Shown here in pieces: positions 18,911-41,959 of a DNA stretch of 52,926 bases. Source of the stretch: a virus; the IMG/VR virus record IMGVR_UViG_3300038555_000005, positions 1 to 52,926 of that record. One strand, 5' to 3'. How positions within the stretch are numbered: position 1 is the stretch's first letter; every line of letters begins with the position of its first letter. The translations under genes and the position numbers were made by a program. A model generated the notes under the pieces. That model was not told the origin of the DNA, made no database searches, and saw only the letters and a program-made list of their open reading frames with translations.

Positions 18911-20491
18911 TCAGCGCATGAGCCGGGTCACGGTGCCGTCCTTCGCGATGTGGATCATCGACGTGAACCACGGGAAAGACGCGAATCGTCGGCGCATCTC
19001 ATCGAGCACCATGGCGTCGTCCAGTCGAGTGCGGGCCGTGTCGATGACCACGCGACGAGCGCCCTGCTCCTTCGCACGGTGTAGCTGGTTCGAGATCGTG
19101 CTCTTCCCGATGCCCTGGGGGCTCTTGAACTCCCACAGCTGGCTGTCGACAGTCGCGTCGATGTTCTTGACGCCCTGCCCGGTCTGGATCGTGCGGAACC
19201 GGACCCTGAGACCGACGTCGGCGAGCCTGTTCGCCGTGGCGAGCTCGTGACCCTGCAGGGCCAGGCCCTCGGGGATATGCGGGGCGACCCTCGACGCGGC
19301 AGATACCGGTCGGAGGATGCGCTCCGCAGAGCTCGCCGAGCCGTGGCGGCCGTCAGCGAATCGGACCTGAGCGCGCTCGTAGCGGCGGCGCTGACCAGTC
19401 GCGGAGACATGCGCACGGGTCTCCGCCTGGATAGTGAGGACCCGGCTCTGCTGCCGCTTCGCCTTCGCGGTGTCGCCGGCGGCCGTCGCAATCTCCAGCT
19501 TCCGCTTCGCGTCGCGCTCGCGGACCTCCAGCTCGCGGAGGCGGTCGCGCGCGGCGTGCGCGGCCGGGTCGTACGCGGGGGCCGACACGGAAACCGAGAA
19601 TCCGGGCAGGTACTCGACCAGCACACAGGTGCAGTTCGGGTGCTTCGCCCCAGACGCACGCCAGTCGGCGAGCGTGCCCGCAACGTCGACGGTGATGGTC
19701 CGGTCCTCGTACGAGTGGAGTACTTCGCGTGGCCCTGCCGTGCCGGTGCTCGCGATGATCTTCCCGAACCACGGTGCGCAGTGGTCGCACGCGTTCCGAC
19801 CGCCGAGCACCGTGAACAGGTCGATGCCAACCTGCGCGGCGCGGAATACCTTCGCGTCGTCGTACGCACGGGTGACGGCCGTCCGGGTCGCCATCTCCGA
19901 GTACGTGCCGATGCGCCAGTTACGGCCGGCGATGTCGGTGAACCCAGTGACGCCCCGCTCGAGGAACTCCTGCAGCGCTGCCTTCCGCGCCACGGCCGTC
20001 GGTATGCCGAGCGGCACCTGGCCGGCGTGGTTCGCGATGACCTGCTGGAAGACGTCGCCGCCGACCACGAACTGGCCCATCGCGTCTCGCGGGTAGCGCA
20101 GGATCCTCGCGCGCATGTCCTCGAAGGCGTTGCCGAGATCGTAGGCGACGAGCGCCGCGGCGAGGGCCTGCTGCGTGGAAACGCCAGCGAGCGGCGGTAT
20201 CGACGGCAGCTGCACGACGGATGCCGCGCCCTCGCGCGCCGCGCGAGCGACGATGTCCCCGGCGAGGTCGCGAGTGATTCCCTCCGTCAGCGCGGCGGCG
20301 ATGCCTTCGAGCTCGCGCACGATGGCCAGGCGCTCAGCCAGGTCGGGCATGTCCGGGAGGTCGCGGATCAGGCGGCGGGCGATTGCTGCGAGTAGCCGAG
20401 TCTCGGCGTCCGCGAAGGTGCCCGCCACCTGAGCAGCGATCCGGTACACGAGCTGCTGATAGTCGTCATGCTCGGGGGCGAACCCAGCCAT
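18911..20491 (-). CDS. MuF-like head protein with CdiA-type nuclease
   Basis: A 526-aa two-part protein. Residues about 1-300 form the MuF / phage minor head domain, with a likely zinc site (C235, C238, H284, C287 or C289). After a charged coiled linker (about 310-375), residues about 412-526 resemble the CdiA C-terminal tRNase domain of the PD-(D/E)XK superfamily: GHELATANRLADVG, D445 in KNIDATV, E454 and K456 in LWEFKSP, then an alpha helix and VVIDTA. MuF proteins enter the head and may be ejected with DNA, so the domain could act on a recipient cell. The ATG at 20491 follows GGGAGGTG. No adjacent immunity gene is evident. Confidence 0.82.
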   Translation of the reverse strand: MAGFAPEHDDYQQLVYRIAAQVAGTFADAETRLLAAIARRLIRDLPDMPDLAERLAIVRELEGIAAALTEGITRDLAGDIVARAAREGAASVVQLPSIPPLAGVSTQQALAAALVAYDLGNAFEDMRARILRYPRDAMGQFVVGGDVFQQVIANHAGQVPLGIPTAVARKAALQEFLERGVTGFTDIAGRNWRIGTYSEMATRTAVTRAYDDAKVFRAAQVGIDLFTVLGGRNACDHCAPWFGKIIASTGTAGPREVLHSYEDRTITVDVAGTLADWRASGAKHPNCTCVLVEYLPGFSVSVSAPAYDPAAHAARDRLRELEVRERDAKRKLEIATAAGDTAKAKRQQSRVLTIQAETRAHVSATGQRRRYERAQVRFADGRHGSASSAERILRPVSAASRVAPHIPEGLALQGHELATANRLADVGLRVRFRTIQTGQGVKNIDATVDSQLWEFKSPQGIGKSTISNQLHRAKEQGARRVVIDTARTRLDDAMVLDEMRRRFASFPWFTSMIHIAKDGTVTRLMR

Positions 20492-20602: not shown

Positions 20603-22258
20603 CTATGCGCCGTCGTCGGGAGTCTCGCCCGCCGCCTCCCGCGCCATCCGGTCCCGCAACTTCTCGATGTCCTCGGGCGTCGGCTGCGTGTCGTCGTCCA
20701 CCGTCCCGACCTTCGTCGGATCGGCGGCCTCTCCGATACCGAACTCCTCGCGGATCCGCTTCACCTCGCCGTTGACGGTCTCGCCGTCCCACTCCGGGTG
20801 CTGCATGCGGACTCGCGTCTCGACGGACGCGGACTGTGCGGCGTAGAGCATCTGGTTCGTGCGGGCCATCGACTCCTGATCGGCCTGCGCTTCCGCGGGG
20901 AAGCGGAACTCCGGCTCCTCCTGGGGGCTCTGGCCGTCATACACGATCGAGTCCAGCTGAAGCCACGTGAGGAAGAACGGCGAGAGCGTCTTCCAGTAGT
21001 TGATCTTCTTGTCTCGGGTGCGCTCGGAGAGGCGGTCGTCGGACTTGATCTCCGTAGCGGTGCGCATGCCGGCGTCGGAGCCGCCGATGCTGCCCGGGGT
21101 CCACCCTGCGGAGCGCATCGCCTGGTCACGCAGCTCCTTGACGGTGGCGGCGTGCTCCTCGACACGGATCTCGAACTGGTGGGCGTGGAAACCGAAGTCC
21201 TGCCCGCCGGGGCCCGTGAGCGCGTTCATGCCCTCGTATACCTCGCGGTCGAAGTCGAACGACGCGCCGCCGCCGAACCCGCCGCCTTCGAGGTATTGCT
21301 TCGCGACGACGATGCGGGCCTTCGCGATGCGGATGTCCCGCATCCACGACGACCAGACCTCGTCGACGGCGTCGAACAGCTGGACGATGTCGGCGTAGTC
21401 GGAGATCCCGAGCTGCGAGAGGCGCGGCTCCTTCCGGAACAGCTTGTTCGGGCGCATGTTCGGGACGTAGGCGGCGGTGAGGCCCTTGACCTGCGTGAGG
21501 ATCTGACTGTTCGCGTTGACCACGGCCGGGATGCCGTTGGCGGGGTCGCCGGCGAGCCACGCGGTCTCGGGGCGCTCGGACAGCGGCTGGCGGGTGCCGA
21601 GCTTGTCCTCGGTGCCCTCGTACAGGCCGTGCTCGATCGAACCGGCGGCGTGGTGTTCCAGGTGACGCCAGACATTGCCCTTCTCCCGGGACAGCTCGGT
21701 CCAGAACGTGACCTCGTGCAGCTGACCGAACCGGAAGGTCGGGATCGCCGCGTCGGCGTAGACCGCCTCGGCTCGCACGGTGGTCAGGCGCTCTTTGTTC
21801 CATACGAGGCGGAGGAACGTGCCGCCGAGAGCCGACGCGATCTCGCCGGACTCCAGCAGCAGCGAATGAAACGAGGACGTGTTGATGACCTTCTCGGCGC
21901 GGTCCTGCATCGTGTCGCGGGGCGTGTTCCCGTCCTTCGACCGTTCGCCGGGAAGTACCACGCGCGGCGCCTCGGAGAATAGGTAGTCGGCGGAGAGCGT
22001 CGCGATGTCGGCGGCGAGAGGGATGTGCAGCCGCGAGCGTGTCTCGGCGGTCGCCTGTGGCTTGCCGAGCCATGCGCGCGCGCCGGCGCCGAGGATGCCG
22101 CCGTTGTACTGCGCCGGGTGCGAGATCGGGCGGTCGCGGTAGATGGACGCGAGTGCGGCGATGTTGCCGGTGTACCAGCCGTCGAACACTTCGAGGAGGT
22201 CGAAGTAGGGAGAGAACTCCTTCGGCGGCCAGGTCACGTTCCCAGTGGGCAGCGGCAT
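20603..22258 (-). CDS. Portal protein (SPP1 gp6-like)
   Basis: A 551-aa portal, the dodecameric DNA gate at one head vertex. Its length and order (terminase, portal, MuF, scaffold, coat) match gp6-like portals; conserved-looking stretches include LLLESGEIASALGGTFLRLVWN and MRTATEIKSDDRLSERTRDKKI. The acidic C-terminus (TPEDIEKLRDRMAREAAGETPDD) is typical. The ribosome site is AAGGGAG. Confidence 0.9.
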   Translation of the reverse strand: MPLPTGNVTWPPKEFSPYFDLLEVFDGWYTGNIAALASIYRDRPISHPAQYNGGILGAGARAWLGKPQATAETRSRLHIPLAADIATLSADYLFSEAPRVVLPGERSKDGNTPRDTMQDRAEKVINTSSFHSLLLESGEIASALGGTFLRLVWNKERLTTVRAEAVYADAAIPTFRFGQLHEVTFWTELSREKGNVWRHLEHHAAGSIEHGLYEGTEDKLGTRQPLSERPETAWLAGDPANGIPAVVNANSQILTQVKGLTAAYVPNMRPNKLFRKEPRLSQLGISDYADIVQLFDAVDEVWSSWMRDIRIAKARIVVAKQYLEGGGFGGGASFDFDREVYEGMNALTGPGGQDFGFHAHQFEIRVEEHAATVKELRDQAMRSAGWTPGSIGGSDAGMRTATEIKSDDRLSERTRDKKINYWKTLSPFFLTWLQLDSIVYDGQSPQEEPEFRFPAEAQADQESMARTNQMLYAAQSASVETRVRMQHPEWDGETVNGEVKRIREEFGIGEAADPTKVGTVDDDTQPTPEDIEKLRDRMAREAAGETPDDGA

Positions 22259-22494: not shown

Positions 22495-22761
22495 CTATGC
22501 GAAGCGGTGCAGCAGGTACGCGCCGAGACCGGCCGTCGCACTGACGGGCTGCTCGGACGGAGAGACGACAGCGCGGCCAGCTTCCCCCGACTGCTCGAGC
22601 TCGGCGTTCGTCCACTCCACACCGACCGCCCACGCGACCACGAACGGGTCCTCATCGGGGCGGATCAGGCGGAGGTACTCGGAGATCGCCCGGCCGACGG
22701 CGTCGCGAGCGGCGACGACATCGGGCGCGAGGTACTCGTACGGCCGTTCACCGTCGCTCAC
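22495..22761 (-). CDS. Hypothetical protein (88 aa)
   Basis: A helical, acidic 88-aa protein of unknown function that ends the HIT/2H cassette. It starts with GTG overlapping the preceding stop (GTGA), so it depends on upstream translation. No family motif is recognised. Confidence 0.65.
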   Translation of the reverse strand: MSDGERPYEYLAPDVVAARDAVGRAISEYLRLIRPDEDPFVVAWAVGVEWTNAELEQSGEAGRAVVSPSEQPVSATAGLGAYLLHRFA

Positions 22762-23138
22762 GAGCGCTGTTCTGTCCACGGCAGCCGGAGGCCGTCGCCT
22801 GCGCGGCGGGGCACGTAGTGCACGTGCAGGTGGCGGACGGTCTGCGATGCCTCCGGCCCGGCGTTCACGATGAGGTTGAAGTCCTCGCCCTGCTGCGCCG
22901 CCCACCAGGCGGCCCACTCGAAGACAGCGCCGGTCGCCGCGGGAGCTTCCGCTGCGTCCTCGTAGTGGAAGGCGGGGATGAACAGACGGTGGCGGGGCGT
23001 GACGGGGTTGAGGGGTTCGAAGTGGTAGACCCCGGACGAACCGAGCTGCTCGATGCCCGTCCCCTTGGTGACGTGCTCCATGACCAGCACGCAGAACGGG
23101 CATCCCGCCTCGGCGGCGACAGCGGTCGCGGCGCTCAC
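22758..23138 (-). CDS. HIT-family nucleotide hydrolase
   Basis: A 126-aa protein with the histidine triad H103-L-H105-V-H107-Y and the upstream FNLIVNAGPEASQ loop typical of HIT enzymes. An N-terminal C13-x2-C16 pair matches the zinc-binding HIT subgroup. HIT proteins hydrolyse or transfer nucleoside phosphates (AMP-lysine, dinucleotides, adenylated intermediates). The GTG start overlaps the 2H phosphoesterase stop (GTGA). The partner enzyme upstream suggests handling of a nucleotide or RNA-end product; the substrate is unknown. Confidence 0.85.
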   Translation of the reverse strand: MSAATAVAAEAGCPFCVLVMEHVTKGTGIEQLGSSGVYHFEPLNPVTPRHRLFIPAFHYEDAAEAPAATGAVFEWAAWWAAQQGEDFNLIVNAGPEASQTVRHLHVHYVPRRAGDGLRLPWTEQRS

Positions 23139-23737
23139 GGCCGGCCCCCGTAGTCGATGCCTGTCACCGCGAGCGGGGCATCGCGCAGCGCACCTTGGAG
23201 CGCGCGCACCCAGGCTTCGGCGGTGGTGCTCGCCCAGTCGACGCCGGACGGCTGATCCTTCACGTAGGCGAGGGTCACATGCGCCCGGTAGCCGGGGAAC
23301 GTGTTGATGTGCGGGAGGTACGACAGGCGAGCGTGCGCCTTGGCGAGCTCGGGCGTGATCACCAGGTGCGCAACGATGCACTTGTACGGCTCATCGGGGT
23401 AGGGCGAGTCGAAGATGCCGACGTGGTCGACCTTCACCGATGCGAGTTCGACGTCGGCGAGGAGCGCGTCGACGTGCTCGCGCCACACGGGCCCGGGCTG
23501 CATGAGCCCGTAGAGCAGGGTCGCGTGCGCGCCGGTCTCGGCGACTGCGCCGTCGATCCAGAAGCGCTCCGCCAGGTTCGGCGAGGTGTAGAGGTCACGT
23601 TCTGGGGCCAGGCCCGCGTCACGCGCGTAGTCGGTGACCGCGATGTGCTCGACCTCGGCCATGATGCAGCCGAGGTCGCTGATCTTGATGCCGAGCGCGG
23701 CGTGCACGTCGGGGAACAGGTGGACGGACTCGCTCAT
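23135..23737 (-). CDS. 2H phosphoesterase family protein
   Basis: A 200-aa protein with both signature motifs of the 2H superfamily: H71-A-T73-L and H153-V-T155-L, spaced as in ligT/AKAP7-like enzymes. Family members cleave 2',3'-cyclic phosphates or 2'-5' linked and cyclic oligonucleotides, including phage anti-CBASS enzymes. It is coupled by ATGA/GTGA overlaps to a small membrane protein gene and the HIT gene. Target molecule unknown. Confidence 0.83.
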   Translation of the reverse strand: MSESVHLFPDVHAALGIKISDLGCIMAEVEHIAVTDYARDAGLAPERDLYTSPNLAERFWIDGAVAETGAHATLLYGLMQPGPVWREHVDALLADVELASVKVDHVGIFDSPYPDEPYKCIVAHLVITPELAKAHARLSYLPHINTFPGYRAHVTLAYVKDQPSGVDWASTTAEAWVRALQGALRDAPLAVTGIDYGGRP

Positions 23738-23916
23738 CGGCCGACTCCCTTCAGCGCGATGCAAAGCGCCGGATCCTGCGCGAATGCGCACCCGACGTCG
23801 CCACCGGTGATCACGAGGCGGATGCCGAACACGACAGCGCAGATCGCGAGGAAGATGAAGGCGACGATCACCCAGGCGAACACGGTGGCAACGGCGTCGA
23901 ACTTCCGGCTGGCCAT
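23734..23916 (-). CDS. Small membrane protein (60 aa)
   Basis: A 60-aa protein with one long hydrophobic segment (about residues 10-36) and two Cys residues in the C-terminal tail. It overlaps its neighbours at both ends (TGATG and ATGA). The role is unknown; its coupling suggests the cassette acts partly at the membrane. Confidence 0.65.
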   Translation of the reverse strand: MASRKFDAVATVFAWVIVAFIFLAICAVVFGIRLVITGGDVGCAFAQDPALCIALKGVGR

Positions 23917-24326
23917 CACGCGTCCTTCCCGTATGCGACGTCGCGCGCGCGGCGCAGCGCGGAGATGGCGAGGTTCGTCTCTCGGCGGTCGAGCACGTCG
24001 GAGGTGACGCGGAAGGTGCACGCCTCGGTGTCGAGCGCGCCGATGTCGGCGTACTTGCGAGCCTCAGCCTGCGCCTGAGCTTCCGCGGAGGCGAGCATCG
24101 ACCGGAGGTCAGCGACGGACACCTCGATGCCGAGCTGTACCCAGCCGATGTCGTGCTGGACGCCAAGCGCGCCGGATCCGCCGGTGCGGTTCCACTCGAT
24201 GTGGAGGTTCTTCCGGGCGATCTCCTGGTGGACGATCGCCTCGGGGGCGTCGTCGGAGTCGCTGATCGTCGGCGCCGCGACGGATTGCGCCACGATGCGG
24301 TTGTGGGTGATCTGTTCTCTGGGCAT
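23916..24326 (-). CDS. Hypothetical protein (136 aa)
   Basis: A soluble protein with a beta-rich middle (HIEWNRTGGSGALG, GWVQLGIEVSVADL) and a helical C-terminus rich in Ala. It is the first gene of the coupled HIT/2H cassette. Ribosome site GGAAGGG. No family recognised. Confidence 0.65.
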   Translation of the reverse strand: MPREQITHNRIVAQSVAAPTISDSDDAPEAIVHQEIARKNLHIEWNRTGGSGALGVQHDIGWVQLGIEVSVADLRSMLASAEAQAQAEARKYADIGALDTEACTFRVTSDVLDRRETNLAISALRRARDVAYGKDA

Positions 24327-24429: not shown

Positions 24430-24969
24430 ATGCAGCCCACTAAGCAGCACCGAGAGACGGCCTCTGACCTGGATCGGAAGTTCCGCAGGGGTGCGTACGT
24501 CGGGATACTCGTCAGCGAGAGCGATAAGGACGCGCACGCACTCTGGTATGGGCGTGTGCTCACCGCACTGACCATCACGGCCGCCGGCGAAGAGATCATC
24601 TGGGCGCAGATGCAGGTTCGGGATGAGGGCGGGGGCGAAGTGTTCTTCACTGTCCTCACCGCCCAGGCGGTGCTCCTTGGGCACGCCACCGGCGTCAAGG
24701 AGGGCACTCCGAAGATCGACGACGTACGAGCGATCGGTCGAAACGCCCTTGCCCTGGTCGAAGTGAAGGCCGATGTCGAGATCGACGGGAATGGCGCGTC
24801 CGCGCACGCTTGGCCCGGCAACGTCCAGGTCGTCGCCGAGTACCGCGTGCCGAAACCGCAGGGCAAGCAACTCGTCTTCTTCGGGGCCTACGAGACGCAG
24901 AGCGACCAGGAGAACGAATCTCCGGTGCTCGGCCTGCTGGCCGAGTTGCAGAAGGACCTGAACTCCTGA
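24430..24969 (+). CDS. Hypothetical protein (179 aa), plus strand
   Basis: An unrecognised soluble protein with a strong GGGGGG ribosome site. It has a beta-rich middle (VGILVSESD, ALWYGRVLTALTI, FFTVLTAQAVLLG) and ends with an acidic helical tail. It is oriented against the late operon and paired with the lipoprotein downstream, which suggests separate expression, perhaps in lysogens. An immunity role toward the MuF nuclease is possible but untested. Confidence 0.6.
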   Translation: MQPTKQHRETASDLDRKFRRGAYVGILVSESDKDAHALWYGRVLTALTITAAGEEIIWAQMQVRDEGGGEVFFTVLTAQAVLLGHATGVKEGTPKIDDVRAIGRNALALVEVKADVEIDGNGASAHAWPGNVQVVAEYRVPKPQGKQLVFFGAYETQSDQENESPVLGLLAELQKDLNS

Positions 24970-24992: not shown

Positions 24993-24998
24993 GAGCGC

Positions 24999-36982: not shown

Positions 36983-37590
36983 CAGCCGACCGCCCTCGTG
37001 CTGAGGAGGCGTGCGCGGGCGGTGTCGTCAGCGATGGCCTTGAGGCGGAAGTACTCGACCTCGCCATAGACCTCGATCATCATGACCATGGCCGTCGCGT
37101 AGCCGATCTCCTGTCGGCTTTCGCCTTCGAGGCGATACCAGCGGCCCTCGTTGGCGAAGTACACCGGCACGCGTCGTTCGTCGTCCACCCAGACGGGCAC
37201 CTTCACGCCCCACGCCTGTGCCTGAGCAGCCCACTCGGCGTTGGACTCGATCCAGCCATTGAGGATGGAGTCGAGCCAGAGCACGTTCGTCAGGCGGTGC
37301 TTGTTCTTGCGTCCGCCCATGCCGCCCTGACGGTGCTGCGGGACGATGCGGTCGCTCTGTGATCCACTCATGACGCAGGCGCGGCCGCGCAGCGCGTCAC
37401 GGCGGTCGAGGGCGAGGATGGTCATCGCGGGTACGCGGTCTGCCACGAGGGCTCCTTGGTGACATGCGCACCGATAGGTGGTGCGGCAGAAGTACGGGGT
37501 CTTGCAGCACGACGGGCGGCAGCGGCCGCGGGGATCGTCGTGCGGGAGGGTGTCGGGGGATGGGCGCGGGTGCGCGAACGCCACAGTCAC
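36982..37590 (-). CDS. HNH-like nuclease with N-terminal zinc part
   Basis: A 202-aa protein. An N-terminal Cys/His-rich segment (C24, C28, C29, C35, C41, C43, H44) precedes the HNH-like core: C72 VMSG, DRIVPQHRQGGMGG (H86), H98, N102 in HRLTNVLWLD, then ILNGWIESNAEW. A replication-linked nuclease is likely. The GTG start overlaps the methyltransferase stop (GTGA). Confidence 0.7.
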   Translation of the reverse strand: MTVAFAHPRPSPDTLPHDDPRGRCRPSCCKTPYFCRTTYRCACHQGALVADRVPAMTILALDRRDALRGRACVMSGSQSDRIVPQHRQGGMGGRKNKHRLTNVLWLDSILNGWIESNAEWAAQAQAWGVKVPVWVDDERRVPVYFANEGRWYRLEGESRQEIGYATAMVMMIEVYGEVEYFRLKAIADDTARARLLSTRAVG

Positions 37591-39320
37591 GCGACGACTC
37601 CGAGAGCCTCGTTGACGTCGTCGCCGATCCAGTGGGCTACGTTCACCGCGACGGCGTTGCCAGCGCCCTGCGTCGTCTCGCTCTTGTTCGCCGCCGACGT
37701 GTCGTACTCGTCCCAGAACCGCTGCGCGCGCAGGTGCTCCTTGGGGCCGAGCATCCGGAATCGGACGTCGTCGAGATCGAACGGCAGGTCCCCCTCGTAC
37801 ATCGACTTCGGTCGCGTCCGCTCGGGCACGACGAGGGAGACGTTCGGGCGCGCGACCATGCTGGGCAACGGGTCGCCGACGCTCTTGTTCATGTGCTCGA
37901 TGCGCGCGTAGTCCAGCCCGCCATGATGCTTCGACACGAAGGCGCCCGGCGGAACGGTCAGCCCGTGGTGGCTTCCGCCGGCAGTGACGGCCGACAGGGC
38001 GGTGTCATCGAGGCCCCGGACGGATCCAGTACCGTACAGCTCGGCGATGTACGGCGGCACGACGAGGTTGTGGTGCGCGCCTCCCGCGGTGATCGCGCCC
38101 AGGGCCGTCGCAGCGGGGTCGCTGTTCCGACGCTCAGACCCGGCTTGCTCGCCGTACTGATGCGAGACGAATGGCGGGAACGCCAGCCCATCACCGATCT
38201 TCGTGGAGCGCGTGGGTAGCGGCCCGGCGGCGAGCTCACGAGCGCGAGCGTCGCCGTCGTGATTCACGGCGAGCATGTACGGCGGGACCGCGACGGCGTC
38301 GCCAGTTCCGCCCGCCTGGCGCGCCATGAGCGGTGCGAGGGAGTCCCACGCTCGGTAGTACGAGTCCGGCTCGCCGAAGCGCGGGTGCCTCGGGTTCGCG
38401 GCATCCCAGGTCTGGCCGGAGTTCGCGACCACCGCAGGACGGGCGAACATCCTCAGCCCCACCTCGATGCGACGGAGCGTCGCCGCGCTCAGCTTCCGCA
38501 TTCCCAGCGACGGACGGTCGCCGAGTCGAATGCCGAGGTCGGACCAGTCGATGACGGCCGCCGCCGGGAGGACGAATGGCTCGACGACCTGCAGCGCGTG
38601 CGTGCCTGAGTCGCAGACGTACACGTACTGCGATCCGTACTTCCCGAATCGGGGCGCGCCTTCCGGTGCCGGCTTCTTCCAGTGCTGGCGTGTCAACACG
38701 ACGGAGTCGCACTGCGCGCACCAGCCCGGCGGCGACGGTTCGAGGCGCGGCTGCGGCACCCCCTTCCGCGTGAGCGCGATGTAGATCCGGTCCCGCCACT
38801 GACCTGCTGGCGCGTTCGTATCCGAGTAGATGTGCGCCGCGTTGACGTTGACGATCTTCCACCGGTAACCGAGCGACTCCCACATGCGCAGCCACGGCTC
38901 GAACAGGGGCCAGGATGCGACCTCGACGACGTTCTCGATCAGGATCACGTCGAAGTTGCGGGCTTCCGCGGCACGCAGCGGGTCGTACATCGTCGCCCGT
39001 GACCGCACACCCGCCTCCGCGGGGAGAGGATCGTCGCCGAAGAGCGTCGGGCCCGTCACCGTCACCCGCTTGCGGCCGCCGGCAGGGGAATGCCACGTGC
39101 ATTCAGGGGACGCCCACAGCACCGGCGCATAGGGCAGGCGGCGCATGTCGTACCCGGACAGGTCGCCCTGGACATGATCGGCGTCACGGTGGTTCGCCGA
39201 GTGCACCTGGATCGCCTTGTCCCAGTGGTTGTACGCCGAGACGAGCGTGAACCCCGCCTCCACGAGGCCGCTGCTGGCACCGCCGAATCCGGCGAAGAAG
39301 TCGAGAAATGGCAGGCTCAC
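37587..39320 (-). CDS. C5-cytosine DNA methyltransferase
   Basis: A 577-aa SAM-dependent enzyme. Motif I DFFAGFGGASSGL (7-19), catalytic C74 in the atypical motif IV SPECTWHS, motif VI ENV (129-131), motif VIII QWRDR (174-178) and C-terminal motif X GAGNAV (about 552) are in order. The long variable region between VIII and X would choose the DNA site. A typical role is masking phage DNA from host restriction. It is translationally coupled at both ends. Confidence 0.87.
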   Translation of the reverse strand: MSLPFLDFFAGFGGASSGLVEAGFTLVSAYNHWDKAIQVHSANHRDADHVQGDLSGYDMRRLPYAPVLWASPECTWHSPAGGRKRVTVTGPTLFGDDPLPAEAGVRSRATMYDPLRAAEARNFDVILIENVVEVASWPLFEPWLRMWESLGYRWKIVNVNAAHIYSDTNAPAGQWRDRIYIALTRKGVPQPRLEPSPPGWCAQCDSVVLTRQHWKKPAPEGAPRFGKYGSQYVYVCDSGTHALQVVEPFVLPAAAVIDWSDLGIRLGDRPSLGMRKLSAATLRRIEVGLRMFARPAVVANSGQTWDAANPRHPRFGEPDSYYRAWDSLAPLMARQAGGTGDAVAVPPYMLAVNHDGDARARELAAGPLPTRSTKIGDGLAFPPFVSHQYGEQAGSERRNSDPAATALGAITAGGAHHNLVVPPYIAELYGTGSVRGLDDTALSAVTAGGSHHGLTVPPGAFVSKHHGGLDYARIEHMNKSVGDPLPSMVARPNVSLVVPERTRPKSMYEGDLPFDLDDVRFRMLGPKEHLRAQRFWDEYDTSAANKSETTQGAGNAVAVNVAHWIGDDVNEALGVVA

Positions 39321-41959
39321 GCTGCGCTCCCTTCGAGGTCGAGGAGGTCGAACAGCGTGGGTGCGTTCGCCTGGTTGTCATGGCGGGTGAGGTAGACGAC
39401 CGAGTCGGCCGTGCTCACGGGGTTGAGTTCGGATCCGAAGCCGCGGCGGCCCTGGCGCACCGCTTCGAGGACCGTGGAGCCGAGACCGCTGAACGGGTCC
39501 CCGACCAGCTCGCCGGGGTTCGAGTACATCCGGATCAGGCGGCGTGGGATGTCGAGCGGGAACGGGCAGATGTGCGCCTCGACCTCGCGCTTGCGCTGCT
39601 CGCTGTTGAGGGTGTCGATGCGCAGCACATCGGTCCAGACGTCGTCGCGCCAAGAGCCGGGCACGAGCGACGCGAACGTACCGGGGAGCGCGTTGGCCGC
39701 GGCGAGGCGGTCAGCGAGCGCGACGTGCGCGTCGTAGTCGTATACCGAGCGCTCCGACTGCGCGGTGAACAGCTTCGACCGGACGCCGACCTCCAGAGCG
39801 GCGAGCTCGTCGCCGGACAGCAGCCGGTTCCCGCCCGTGCGCCACTCGGCGGCGGCGTCGATCTGCCACTGGCCGACGGAGTACTGCGCCTTCTCCTTCT
39901 GCACGGGAAGGTCCGCGTACCCGCGGGAGCGGTTCGTCTGCGGCTTGTGGAACAGCAGCACGTACTCGGGCGAGCCGACGCCCATCTTCGAGTGATCCTT
40001 CGCCATCTCCGAGTACGAGAGCCGGTACGTCTGGTTGTTCTCGCGCACGACGTCGGTCGTGACGGTGATCATCCCGAAGTAGTCGAACCCGTGGCCGGTG
40101 TAGTGTGCGATCGCCTCGGCGTGCATGGTGTCGAACGTGTAGACGCCCGTGCCGGTGACGGATCCGTAGAGCGGGAAGTCTTTCACGTGCACGGCGAGGA
40201 TCCGGCCGGGCATCAGGGCCCTATACAGCGATGGCGTCAGATAGTCCATCTGCCACCAGAACTGGCCGTTGTCGTCGACGTGGCCGAAGTCGGCGTAGTT
40301 GGGGGAGTACTCGTACTTGCCGCCGAAGGGGATCGACGTGACGATCAGCCCCATCGAGTCGGCGGCGACGTGGTCGCGCCACTCGACGACCGAGTCGTTC
40401 AGCACGATCTCCCACTGCTGGCCTGACCATGCCTCGCGCTCGACGCCCATGGCGCGGGCGAGCTCGGTGGAGACGGCGGTCGCGTCGAGGCCGAACTCGC
40501 GGAGGATGTCGCTCATCGTGTCGGTGAGCGCGTCGTCCTCCTGCCACTTCGTGAGCAGGTTGTCGCGGACGTCGGACTCGGTCTCGCCGTAGAGCAGGTA
40601 CACGGTGCACGCGCTGGTCTGGCCGAATCGGTGGATGCGGTGGATGGCCTGCACGGTCTGCTCGTACTTGTGCGTGACGCCGACGAACACAGCCGTGGAG
40701 CATTGCTGCAGGTTCAGACCTCGACCGAGCATCATCGGCTTCCCGATCAGCGCGTACGTCTCGCCGGCGAGCCAGGCGCGCAGTTGCTCCTCGACCTCGT
40801 CGTCGGACTGCGCGCCGCGGATCGAGGAGAAGGTCACGCCGAACTCGCGGAGCCCGGCTTCGAGAACGTCCTGCTCGTCGTTCAGGTCACACCAGAGGAT
40901 GATCTGCTTGAGCTTCGATCCGGCGCGCTGCAGGTCGAAGTGCGGCTTGACGATCTGCATGGCGCGTTCGATGCGCGCGGCGAGCGTGTGCCGCTTCTCG
41001 CGTGAGGACTCGACGGCGGACTTCGCGCCGCCGCGCACGAGCACGCCCTGGCCGTCCTTCTCGATCTGGTCGGAGAGGATGCCGACCTCGACTTCGTCCC
41101 AGACGACCTCGAGCGGAGGCAGTGCGTAGCCGTCGTCGGAGTAGCCGAGGTCGGAGGGCCGCTGGATGAAGCACGCCCAGGTGTTGAGCCACAGCATGAA
41201 CTCGCGCTTCTTGTGCGGGTGGATCTTGAGGTTGCCCGCCTTCGAGGAGTCGCGCTTGAAGAACCGCGTGAGCGCCTGGCCGGTGTCCATGATGCCGAGG
41301 AACCCGGCGTAGTGGATGAGCTCCTTGTGCCGGTTCGGCGCCGGCGTCGCGGTCGCCACGAACCGGTATGGCACGTCGTTGAACAGCGGGAGGAACCTCT
41401 GGTACGTCTCCGAGCCGAACGAGCGCAGCACGGCGGCCTCGTCGAGCGACGCGGCGACGAACAGGGATAGGTCGAGCTTGCCGTCCCGCACCGACTCGTA
41501 GTTCGTGACATAGAGACCGGACCACGCCGGGTCGACGTCGGCCGTCGATCGGACGAACCGCACCTCAGTGTCGAGGAGGTCGCGTCCGTCGGCGATGATG
41601 TCGAAGCGCACGCCAAGAGGGGCGACGATGAGCCCGCGGCGGGTTTCGGTACCGAACGCGTCGCGGGTGCCGCCGATCGCGGGGCCGTGCTCGACGATCA
41701 GGCGCAGGATCTCCAACTGCATGACGGACTTGCCGAGGCCGTAGCGGGCGAAAATCGCGCGGCGACCGCCCTTCACCGCCCACTTCACGATGTCGGCCTG
41801 GTGGGGCTTGAAGTGCTCGTGACCGGGGCGCATGATCGGCGACAGCCATTCGTCGCGAACGTCGAACCCGAAGGACCGGTCGAACGCGACCTTCTCGCGG
41901 AGGAAGGACGTGTAGTCGCGGCCGTCGTTGCCCGTTCTCAAAGTCAGAAGAGTGTTCAT
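39317..41959 (-). CDS. SNF2-like helicase fused to DNA methyltransferase
   Basis: An 880-aa protein. The N-terminal half is an SNF2/SF2 ATPase: Walker A GLGKS (74-78), DEAA box (173-176), TATP (203-206) and motif VI QAIHRIHRFGQT (437-448). The C-terminal half has permuted amino-methyltransferase motifs: TSIPF at 541-545 (in place of TSPPY) and DPFSGLGST at 821-829. Such fusions can scan DNA and methylate it. It resembles anti-restriction helicase-methylases more than a restriction enzyme, since no nuclease motif is evident. Confidence 0.85.
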   Translation of the reverse strand: MNTLLTLRTGNDGRDYTSFLREKVAFDRSFGFDVRDEWLSPIMRPGHEHFKPHQADIVKWAVKGGRRAIFARYGLGKSVMQLEILRLIVEHGPAIGGTRDAFGTETRRGLIVAPLGVRFDIIADGRDLLDTEVRFVRSTADVDPAWSGLYVTNYESVRDGKLDLSLFVAASLDEAAVLRSFGSETYQRFLPLFNDVPYRFVATATPAPNRHKELIHYAGFLGIMDTGQALTRFFKRDSSKAGNLKIHPHKKREFMLWLNTWACFIQRPSDLGYSDDGYALPPLEVVWDEVEVGILSDQIEKDGQGVLVRGGAKSAVESSREKRHTLAARIERAMQIVKPHFDLQRAGSKLKQIILWCDLNDEQDVLEAGLREFGVTFSSIRGAQSDDEVEEQLRAWLAGETYALIGKPMMLGRGLNLQQCSTAVFVGVTHKYEQTVQAIHRIHRFGQTSACTVYLLYGETESDVRDNLLTKWQEDDALTDTMSDILREFGLDATAVSTELARAMGVEREAWSGQQWEIVLNDSVVEWRDHVAADSMGLIVTSIPFGGKYEYSPNYADFGHVDDNGQFWWQMDYLTPSLYRALMPGRILAVHVKDFPLYGSVTGTGVYTFDTMHAEAIAHYTGHGFDYFGMITVTTDVVRENNQTYRLSYSEMAKDHSKMGVGSPEYVLLFHKPQTNRSRGYADLPVQKEKAQYSVGQWQIDAAAEWRTGGNRLLSGDELAALEVGVRSKLFTAQSERSVYDYDAHVALADRLAAANALPGTFASLVPGSWRDDVWTDVLRIDTLNSEQRKREVEAHICPFPLDIPRRLIRMYSNPGELVGDPFSGLGSTVLEAVRQGRRGFGSELNPVSTADSVVYLTRHDNQANAPTLFDLLDLEGSAA

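What the first reader, a model, noticed from the sequence alone, without database searches (positions are those of the whole stretch)
22495..24326. Coupled HIT + 2H phosphoesterase cassette inside the structural operon
Five genes overlap end to end: a 136-aa protein, a small membrane protein, a 2H phosphoesterase (H71-x-T, H153-x-T), a HIT hydrolase (HxHxH) and an 88-aa protein. They interrupt the terminase-portal order. 2H enzymes include phage anti-CBASS nucleases (established), and HIT enzymes handle nucleotidyl products. The pairing suggests degradation of a cyclic or adenylated signal, possibly a defence countermeasure. The substrate is unknown.
Basis: partly seen in the sequence, partly recalled or inferred. 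Interest (0 to 1): 0.82.

Follow-up and report, generated by a model that had tools for sequence, protein, structure and literature searches.

The report
Swappable counter-defence genes beside phage portal
Between two virion-assembly genes, this temperate phage of an actinobacterium carries a small, exchangeable set of genes including two nucleotide-cutting enzymes, and its sister phages keep a known immune-signal blocker in the same place, so these genes most likely disarm the bacterium's chemical alarm signals.

Summary
Five minus-strand genes (24326 to 22495) overlap by 1-4 bases between terminase and portal. One is a 2H phosphoesterase (H71xT, H153xT, invariant in 30 relatives) and one a HIT hydrolase. 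Between the window and its nearest relative, dN/dS of both is about as low as that of terminase.

The block is not a conserved unit. Sister phages keep the terL-portal-MuF backbone and swap the contents: p136 without 2H or HIT, HIT without 2H, 2H without HIT. The 2H gene is 81% identical in a phage whose portal is only 38% identical, so it moves on its own. Elsewhere the same 2H family is fused to portal proteins of two Pfam families.

Two results favour counter-defence. First, the 2H model (pLDDT 94.8) matches avipox cGAMP phosphodiesterase clearly best (Z 15.8), ahead of Acb1 (10.5) and E. coli LigT (9.8). Second, two related phages carry an Acb2/Tad1 sponge (PF24729) in this same interval, and 11 of 26 relatives of that sponge lie in the terL-portal-MuF region.

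Portal/MuF-fused 2H domains with an anti-signalling role were already proposed (PMC9503650). New here are the swappable site, the avipox-type 2H, and HIT plus 2H in head modules of two phage lineages. Substrates are unproven.

The parts
23916..24326 (-). p136: 136-aa protein of unknown fold (phrog_10659), a recurrent head-module resident
   Evidence: relatives near terL/portal/MuF in the other IMG/VR contigs found, usually without 2H; AF2 model too weak to use (pLDDT 51)
23734..23916 (-). TM60: 60-aa small membrane protein
   Evidence: kept 70% in L002 and 57% in L160, where the gene in front of it is an Acb2/Tad1 homologue
23135..23737 (-). 2H phosphoesterase, 200 aa, catalytic H71xT and H153xT
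   Evidence: AF2 model pLDDT 94.8; best match avipox cGAMP PDE Z 15.8
22758..23138 (-). HIT-family hydrolase, 126 aa, HxHxH and CxxC
22495..22761 (-). p88: 88-aa protein of unknown function; a relative lies upstream of a terminase-like gene in L161 and a similar sequence ends the L003 block
24996..25403 (+). Small lipoprotein (DUF732-like), antisense to the late genes; boundary gene of the variable site in sister phages
   Evidence: Pfam PF05305 35.9 bits; similar lipoproteins at the same place in L002, L156, L160
24430..24969 (+). 179-aa protein of unknown function, antisense to the late genes, inside the variable site
   Evidence: no significant family
25407..26741 (-). Terminase large subunit: upstream flank of the variable site
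   Evidence: phrog_2, E 5e-44
20603..22258 (-). Portal protein: downstream flank of the variable site
   Evidence: phrog_533, E 1e-88
18911..20491 (-). Minor capsid/MuF-type protein with C-terminal CdiA_C toxin-like domain
   Evidence: PF06152 108.6 bits and PF18451 33.9 bits, both over cut-off

Best explanation
The interval between terL and portal in this family of temperate actinophages is an exchangeable cargo site inside the late (head) operon. In this phage it carries a small counter-defence set. The 2H protein is most likely a phosphodiesterase that destroys a cyclic nucleotide immune signal of the host (CBASS-type cyclic di- or trinucleotide), cutting through its two HxT motifs without metal, as avipox cGAMP PDE and T4 Acb1 do. 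Being in the late operon, it would be made when virion parts accumulate; it may also be packaged, since the same 2H family is covalently fused to portal proteins in other phages. HIT is a separately acquired nucleotide hydrolase that probably removes a second nucleotide signal or adduct. Shown: genes, motifs, fold, purifying selection, swapping of the site's contents, an Acb2/Tad1 sponge at the same site in related phages, portal fusions. Inferred: substrate, timing, packaging, any cooperation between 2H and HIT.
For: Fold: the 2H model (pLDDT 94.8) matches avipox cGAMP PDE 9bkq at Z 15.8 (171 residues, 2.6 A). Next are plant CPDase 12.1, Usb1 11.1, Acb1 10.5, archaeal LigT-like 10.4 and E. 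coli LigT 9.8. Foldseek also puts 9bkq first (E 8e-8). The match starts at residue 7, so it includes the N-terminal part; avipox PDEs have their lid at the N-terminus, Acb1 at the C-terminus (PMC12064943). Site: sister L160 (terL 83%, portal 65%, same TM60 gene) has an Acb2/Tad1 homologue (PF24729, 65 bits, cut-off 27) directly before TM60; L075, with the HIT closest to ours outside the sister group (64%), has one (64 bits) about 0.8 kb before HIT, also between terL and portal. Of 26 contigs with relatives of that sponge, 11 have it in the terL-portal-MuF series. Head association: portal-2H fusions with two portal families, PF04860 and PF06074; the head label clusters on the 2H tree (7 changes, shuffled mean 12.3, 1 of 500 as low). 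Two portal-fused relatives pass Pfam's Acb1 cut-off. No tRNA gene, and no RNA-ligase or kinase family among the 20 non-structural proteins scanned with Pfam.
Against: No activity has been measured for any member of this 2H family that I know of, and a shared fold does not fix the substrate. The window protein scores below Pfam's Acb1 cut-off (16.3 against 27 bits) and just below 2_5_RNA_ligase2 (26.5 against 27). In NiceHouse a relative lies between an RNA ligase and a polynucleotide kinase, and in Weasels2 near a tRNA gene and a tRNA-His guanylyltransferase, so part of the family may repair RNA. The site's other proteins (p136, p88, TM60) have no known role. 2H itself has not been seen beside Acb2. 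No promoter or terminator was recognised, so expression timing is inferred from gene order only.
Confidence: 0.5

Rival explanations
1. The 2H protein is an RNA end-healing enzyme: it opens 2',3'-cyclic phosphates on tRNAs or mRNAs cut by host toxins so that ligases can reseal them. HIT is an unrelated housekeeping nucleotidase.
For: Relatives in large phages sit near RNA ligase and polynucleotide kinase (NiceHouse) or tRNA-His guanylyltransferase and a tRNA gene (Weasels2). PHROGs names the family RNA ligase. RNA healing is the proposed role for 2H in many large phages (PMC9503650; PMC7824862).
Against: The window has no tRNA gene, and no RNA ligase or kinase family was found in the non-structural genes scanned. 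LigT-type enzymes are clearly weaker structural matches (Z about 10) than avipox cGAMP PDE (15.8). The site is a late, head-module site used by Acb2 sponges in relatives. NCBIfam's RNA cyclic phosphodiesterase model does not match the window protein.
Confidence: 0.25
2. The 2H and HIT enzymes act in NAD+/ADP-ribose chemistry: 2H opens ADP-ribose 1''-2'' cyclic phosphate or a cyclic ADP-ribose signal of Thoeris, and HIT removes a related adenylated product.
For: Plant CPDase, which acts on ADP-ribose 1''-2'' cyclic phosphate, is the second-best fold (Z 12.1). In Pumpernickel the 2H gene stands beside a PRPP-synthetase-like gene and a nicotinate ribosyltransferase, and in L021 an NAPRTase gene lies about 2 kb away. 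A HIT gene (ThsC) accompanies 2.4% of Thoeris systems (PMC8565338). The Acb2/Tad1 hairpin family at this site includes Thoeris-signal sponges.
Against: NAPRTase occurs in only 5 of 33 2H-bearing records and is close by in two. No NAD gene was recognised in the scanned part of the window. The window HIT matches ThsC only at E 0.07, over the HIT motif.
Confidence: 0.13
3. The genes are ordinary accessory passengers, or 2H is a virion-structure domain, with no role against host defence; their meeting is chance at a tolerant insertion site.
For: Contents differ between sisters, HIT and 2H rarely lie together, and p136, p88 and TM60 have no known function.
Against: 2H and HIT are about as constrained as terL. 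Both HxT motifs stay invariant even in portal fusions, which suggests catalysis. Sponges recur at the site, and HIT with 2H met again in Leonardvirus head modules.
Confidence: 0.12

Closest known systems
2H domains fused to portal or MuF proteins in phages (PMC9503650, 2022)
   Same: Same superfamily, same terminase-portal context; those authors already proposed packaging and injection to counter (oligo)nucleotide immune signals
   Different: Here the 2H is a free-standing gene between terL and portal, in a set with HIT, at a site whose contents are swapped between sister phages
Avipox cGAMP phosphodiesterase (9bkq, 9ciw; Hobbs et al. 2024, known here through PMC12064943; related pigeonpox work in PMC11410667)
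   Same: Best fold match by more than 3 Z units, two HxT motifs, alignment includes the N-terminal part where the avipox lid lies
   Different: About 16% sequence identity; phage gene; substrate untested
Phage anti-CBASS nuclease Acb1 (T4, FBB1; PMC9117128)
   Same: 2H fold, HxT/HxT; portal-fused relatives pass the Pfam Acb1 cut-off
   Different: Window protein is below that cut-off; larger (200 against about 150 aa); lid expected at the N- not the C-terminus
Acb2/Tad1 sponge genes (PF24729)
   Same: Occupy the same head-module site in related phages; act on nucleotide signals
   Different: Bind rather than cleave; none found in the window genome
LigT/ThpR-type RNA 2',3'-cyclic phosphodiesterases
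   Same: 2H superfamily
   Different: Weaker fold match (Z about 10), no RNA-repair context in the window
Actinophage HIT proteins (phrog_3962) and ThsC of HIT-bearing Thoeris systems (PMC8565338)
   Same: HxHxH hydrolase fold; phrog_3962 is this family
   Different: Most phage HIT genes lie outside the head module; no specific similarity to ThsC

Membership tests
2H phosphoesterase superfamily | Two HxT catalytic motifs | tested here: met
   H71/T73 and H153/T155 invariant in 30 sequences
2H phosphoesterase superfamily | 2H fold | tested here: met
   AF2 model pLDDT 94.8; the top-ranked matches are 2H enzymes
2H phosphoesterase superfamily | Pfam 2_5_RNA_ligase2 cut-off | tested here: inconclusive
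   26.5 against 27 bits for the window protein; relatives L023, L030, L031, L052 pass
Acb1 anti-CBASS nuclease | Pfam PF23474 cut-off | tested here: not met
   16.3 against 27 bits; relatives L023 and L052 pass
Acb1 anti-CBASS nuclease | C-terminal substrate lid with base-stacking aromatics and E141 (PMC9117128) | tested here: inconclusive
   No residue-level superposition available; the avipox match covers the N-terminal part of the model
Acb1 anti-CBASS nuclease | Cleaves CBASS cyclic nucleotides | not testable with these tools
   Needs enzyme assay
Avipox-type cGAMP phosphodiesterase | Fold closer to it than to other 2H enzymes | tested here: met
   Z 15.8 against 12.1 or less; Foldseek first rank
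Avipox-type cGAMP phosphodiesterase | cGAMP hydrolysis | not testable with these tools
   Needs enzyme assay
LigT/ThpR RNA cyclic phosphodiesterase | NCBIfam TIGR02258 match | tested here: not met
   No match for the window protein; 17.2 against 65.7 bits for the L052 fusion
HIT hydrolase | HxHxH motif and PF01230 cut-off | tested here: met
   HLHVH; 40.8 against 21.5 bits; invariant in 10 relatives
ThsC (Thoeris HIT protein) | PADLOC ThsC model match | tested here: inconclusive
   E 0.066, HIT motif only
Swappable cargo site in the head operon | Same flanks, different contents in sister phages | tested here: met
   Window, L002, L156, L160, L075 share terL and/or portal but differ between them
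Swappable cargo site in the head operon | Known counter-defence gene family at the site in relatives | tested here: met
   Acb2_Tad1_hairpin in L160 and L075 between terL and portal; 11 of 26 sponge loci in the terL-portal-MuF series

The most novel reading that the evidence does not exclude
The terL-portal-MuF region of this broad actinophage group is a dedicated nucleotide-signal counter-defence site that exchanges sponges (Acb2/Tad1), avipox-type cyclic-dinucleotide phosphodiesterases and HIT hydrolases, and HIT plus 2H form a two-step pathway: 2H linearises the immune signal and HIT removes the remaining nucleotide adduct or a second, Thoeris-type signal.
Probability: 0.18. Interest if true: 0.78.

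Novelty: new variant of a known kind. Interest (0 to 1): 0.57.

Why it matters
If the site is a counter-defence slot in head operons, its contents across many actinophages become a list of candidate inhibitors of CBASS, Thoeris and related signalling, with p136, p88, TM60 and HIT as untested entries. It would also place in phages a 2H phosphodiesterase that resembles the animal-virus cGAMP enzyme more than Acb1, a direct test of how virus enzymes against cyclic-nucleotide immunity are related. Portal-fused versions would allow a test of whether such enzymes are carried in the virion.

Tried and rejected
(1) The five genes as a conserved cassette: rejected; only sister L002 keeps four of them. 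(2) HIT and 2H as an obligate pair: rejected; genome-level co-occurrence is 10 of 50 HIT records, with no matched control set, so I draw no enrichment claim. (3) HIT beside NAD genes in Gordonia Wizardvirus: the neighbours labelled PnuC or nicotinate ribosyltransferase are an 82-aa membrane protein; a NAPRTase is normally 400-500 aa, so I treat the label as doubtful and dropped the link. (4) A general NAD link for 2H: 5 of 33 records, too weak. (5) p136 fold: AF2 pLDDT 51, not searched further. (6) Enrichment of Acb2 in HIT records: 4 of 46 records, all HIT-bearing, too few to claim. (7) Close named phage relative: none by megablast. (8) Promoter or terminator consensus in the interval: none; actinobacterial promoters may not fit this scan. 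(9) The scan of the L160 sponge and the alignment used a frame off by one base and are void; the Pfam result used the correct protein, which comes from L160:3411-3650.

Full report
WHAT IS THERE. The window is one whole 52,926-base virus record. A serine recombinase (51472 to the contig end) suggests a temperate phage; its nearest relatives infect or lie in actinobacteria. On the minus strand, between the terminase large subunit (25407-26741) and the portal (20603-22258; both PHROGs-confirmed), five genes overlap by 1 or 4 bases: p136, a 60-aa membrane protein, a 2H phosphoesterase, a HIT hydrolase and p88. Two plus-strand genes, one a small DUF732-like lipoprotein, lie between terL and p136. 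Between the window and its nearest relative L002, dN/dS is about 0.21 for 2H, 0.12 for HIT and 0.14 for terL, with the same dS of about 0.5. These are real genes inherited together with terminase in that pair.

THE BLOCK IS NOT A UNIT. I collected relatives of each gene separately and compared their surroundings. L002 keeps p136-TM60-2H-HIT up to its contig end. L003/L004 have p136 and 2H after the portal, followed by a PGDYG-type phage protein and a p88-like end, with no HIT. Their 2H is 81% identical to ours while terL is 40% and portal 38%, so 2H has moved between phage lineages. L156 (terL 89%, portal 77%, MuF 79%) has p136 at the site but no 2H or HIT. L160 (terL 83%, portal 65%) has TM60 and a PGDYG-type protein there, with p136 moved behind the portal and HIT upstream of terminase. 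L075 has HIT (64%) between terL and portal without 2H. HIT was absent from 32 of 33 2H-bearing phage records (the exception, L002, was found by BLAST), and a 2H gene was within 8 kb in only 2 of 78 HIT loci. Those two are Gordonia Leonardvirus phages (MelBins, EMoore; a third phage, Belphegor, is alike), where HIT follows the MuF gene and a 2H domain lies inside the head-maturation-protease gene. Phinally, a sister without HIT at that place, shows HIT as a clean insertion. So head-module HIT plus 2H has come about twice, by separate insertions.

THE 2H FAMILY AND THE HEAD MODULE. In L028/L029 and L052 the 2H domain is the C-terminal part of a Mu-type portal (PF06074, tested on L052), in L030 of an HK97-type portal (PF04860), and in L023 and L031 it lies behind an HK97-type portal, with a MuF domain after it in L023 (PF04233, below cut-off) and an apparently similar C-terminal region in L031. 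Both HxT motifs are kept. In L019 and L020 the 2H gene follows terL by about 10 bases. On a tree of 40 sequences the head-associated label is clustered (7 changes against a shuffled mean of 12.3; 1 of 500 shuffles as low), the portal fusions form one clade, and at least 6 changes are forced, so the association was gained or lost repeatedly. Other relatives in large lytic phages lie elsewhere, some near RNA-repair genes (NiceHouse, Weasels2) and one near NAD genes (Pumpernickel). Portal- and MuF-fused 2H domains, and the idea that they are injected to counter nucleotide signalling, were published in 2022 (PMC9503650); that part is not new.

FOLD AND LIKELY CHEMISTRY. The AF2 model is confident (pLDDT 94.8). 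Its best match is the avipox cGAMP phosphodiesterase (9bkq, Z 15.8, 171 residues, 2.6 A), then plant ADP-ribose-cyclic-phosphate CPDase (12.1), Usb1 (11.1), phage Acb1 (10.5), archaeal LigT-like protein (10.4) and E. coli LigT (9.8). Foldseek gives the same first rank. The match begins at residue 7, so it takes in the N-terminal part of the model; avipox PDEs carry their lid at the N-terminus and Acb1 at the C-terminus (PMC12064943). By sequence the family profile is about equally near Acb1, archaeal LigT-like proteins and avipox PDE (E 0.001 to 0.015). The window protein misses the Pfam Acb1 cut-off, while two portal-fused relatives pass it. I therefore do not call it Acb1; I say it probably works like one.

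THE SITE IN SISTER PHAGES. In L160 the gene directly before TM60, the place held by p136 in our window, is an Acb2/Tad1 hairpin protein (PF24729, 65.1 bits, cut-off 27). In L075 another (64.1 bits) lies about 0.8 kb before HIT, again between terL and portal. A scan with the L160 protein found 26 contigs with relatives; in 11 of them the gene lies in the terL-portal-MuF series of the same gene families: two between terL and portal, two between portal and MuF, seven just behind MuF (three of these seem to be one lineage). Acb2/Tad1 proteins are known sponges of CBASS and Thoeris signals. This is the strongest contextual argument that the site serves counter-defence, and it favours a signal-degrading role for 2H over RNA repair. 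The window has no tRNA gene and no RNA ligase or kinase family in the 20 non-structural proteins scanned with Pfam.

HIT. It is a bona fide HIT protein (PF01230, phrog_3962) with an invariant CxxC and a phage-type DGLxLPW ending. Its relatives are common in Mycobacterium, Gordonia, Microbacterium and Streptomyces phages, mostly outside the head module. PADLOC's authors linked a HIT gene (ThsC) to 2.4% of Thoeris systems and suggested it acts on the signal (PMC8565338), but our protein shows no specific similarity to it. Its substrate stays open.

VERDICT. A functional coupling of 2H and HIT is possible but not shown.

Noticed in passing
18911-20491 (-): The minor capsid/MuF-type protein (PF06152) ends in a CdiA_C domain (PF18451, 33.9 bits, cut-off 26.6; 44.8 bits in sister L156), so the head module also carries a MuF-type polymorphic toxin. 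No immunity gene was looked for.
   Followed up: partly
L023 6714-9335; L031 2689-5376; L030 2988-5000; L052 6690-8630; L028 and L029 6663-8648: Portal proteins of two Pfam families with the same 2H clade fused behind them; in L023 a MuF domain follows in the same ORF.
   Followed up: yes
L044, L045, L046, L047, L050: Distant 2H domains inside open frames of 1,553 to 3,710 codons, resembling polyvalent injected proteins.
   Followed up: no
L056 6001-9928 (Microbacterium phage Pumpernickel): 2H next to a PRPP-synthetase-like gene and a nicotinate ribosyltransferase, an arrangement like phage NAD-rebuilding genes; an enzyme removing ADP-ribose 1''-2'' cyclic phosphate would make sense there.
   Followed up: no
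L064 and L065 4327-4575 (Gordonia phages Evamon, ClamChowder): Gene behind HIT is annotated nicotinate ribosyltransferase or PnuC, but it is an 82-aa membrane protein; the label looks wrong.
   Followed up: partly
24430-24969 and 24996-25403 (+): Two plus-strand genes run against the late operon at the edge of the site; similar lipoprotein genes occupy the same place in L002, L156 and L160, typical of separately expressed prophage genes.
   Followed up: partly
27970-28701 (-): A phosphoadenosine-phosphosulfate-reductase-like gene, kept 77-92% in L002, L156 and L160, near the terminase small subunit.
   Followed up: no
37587-41959 (-): A C5-cytosine methylase gene overlapping a helicase/N6-N4 methylase protein (PF00145; PF01555 plus PF00271): DNA modification genes of this phage.
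   Followed up: no
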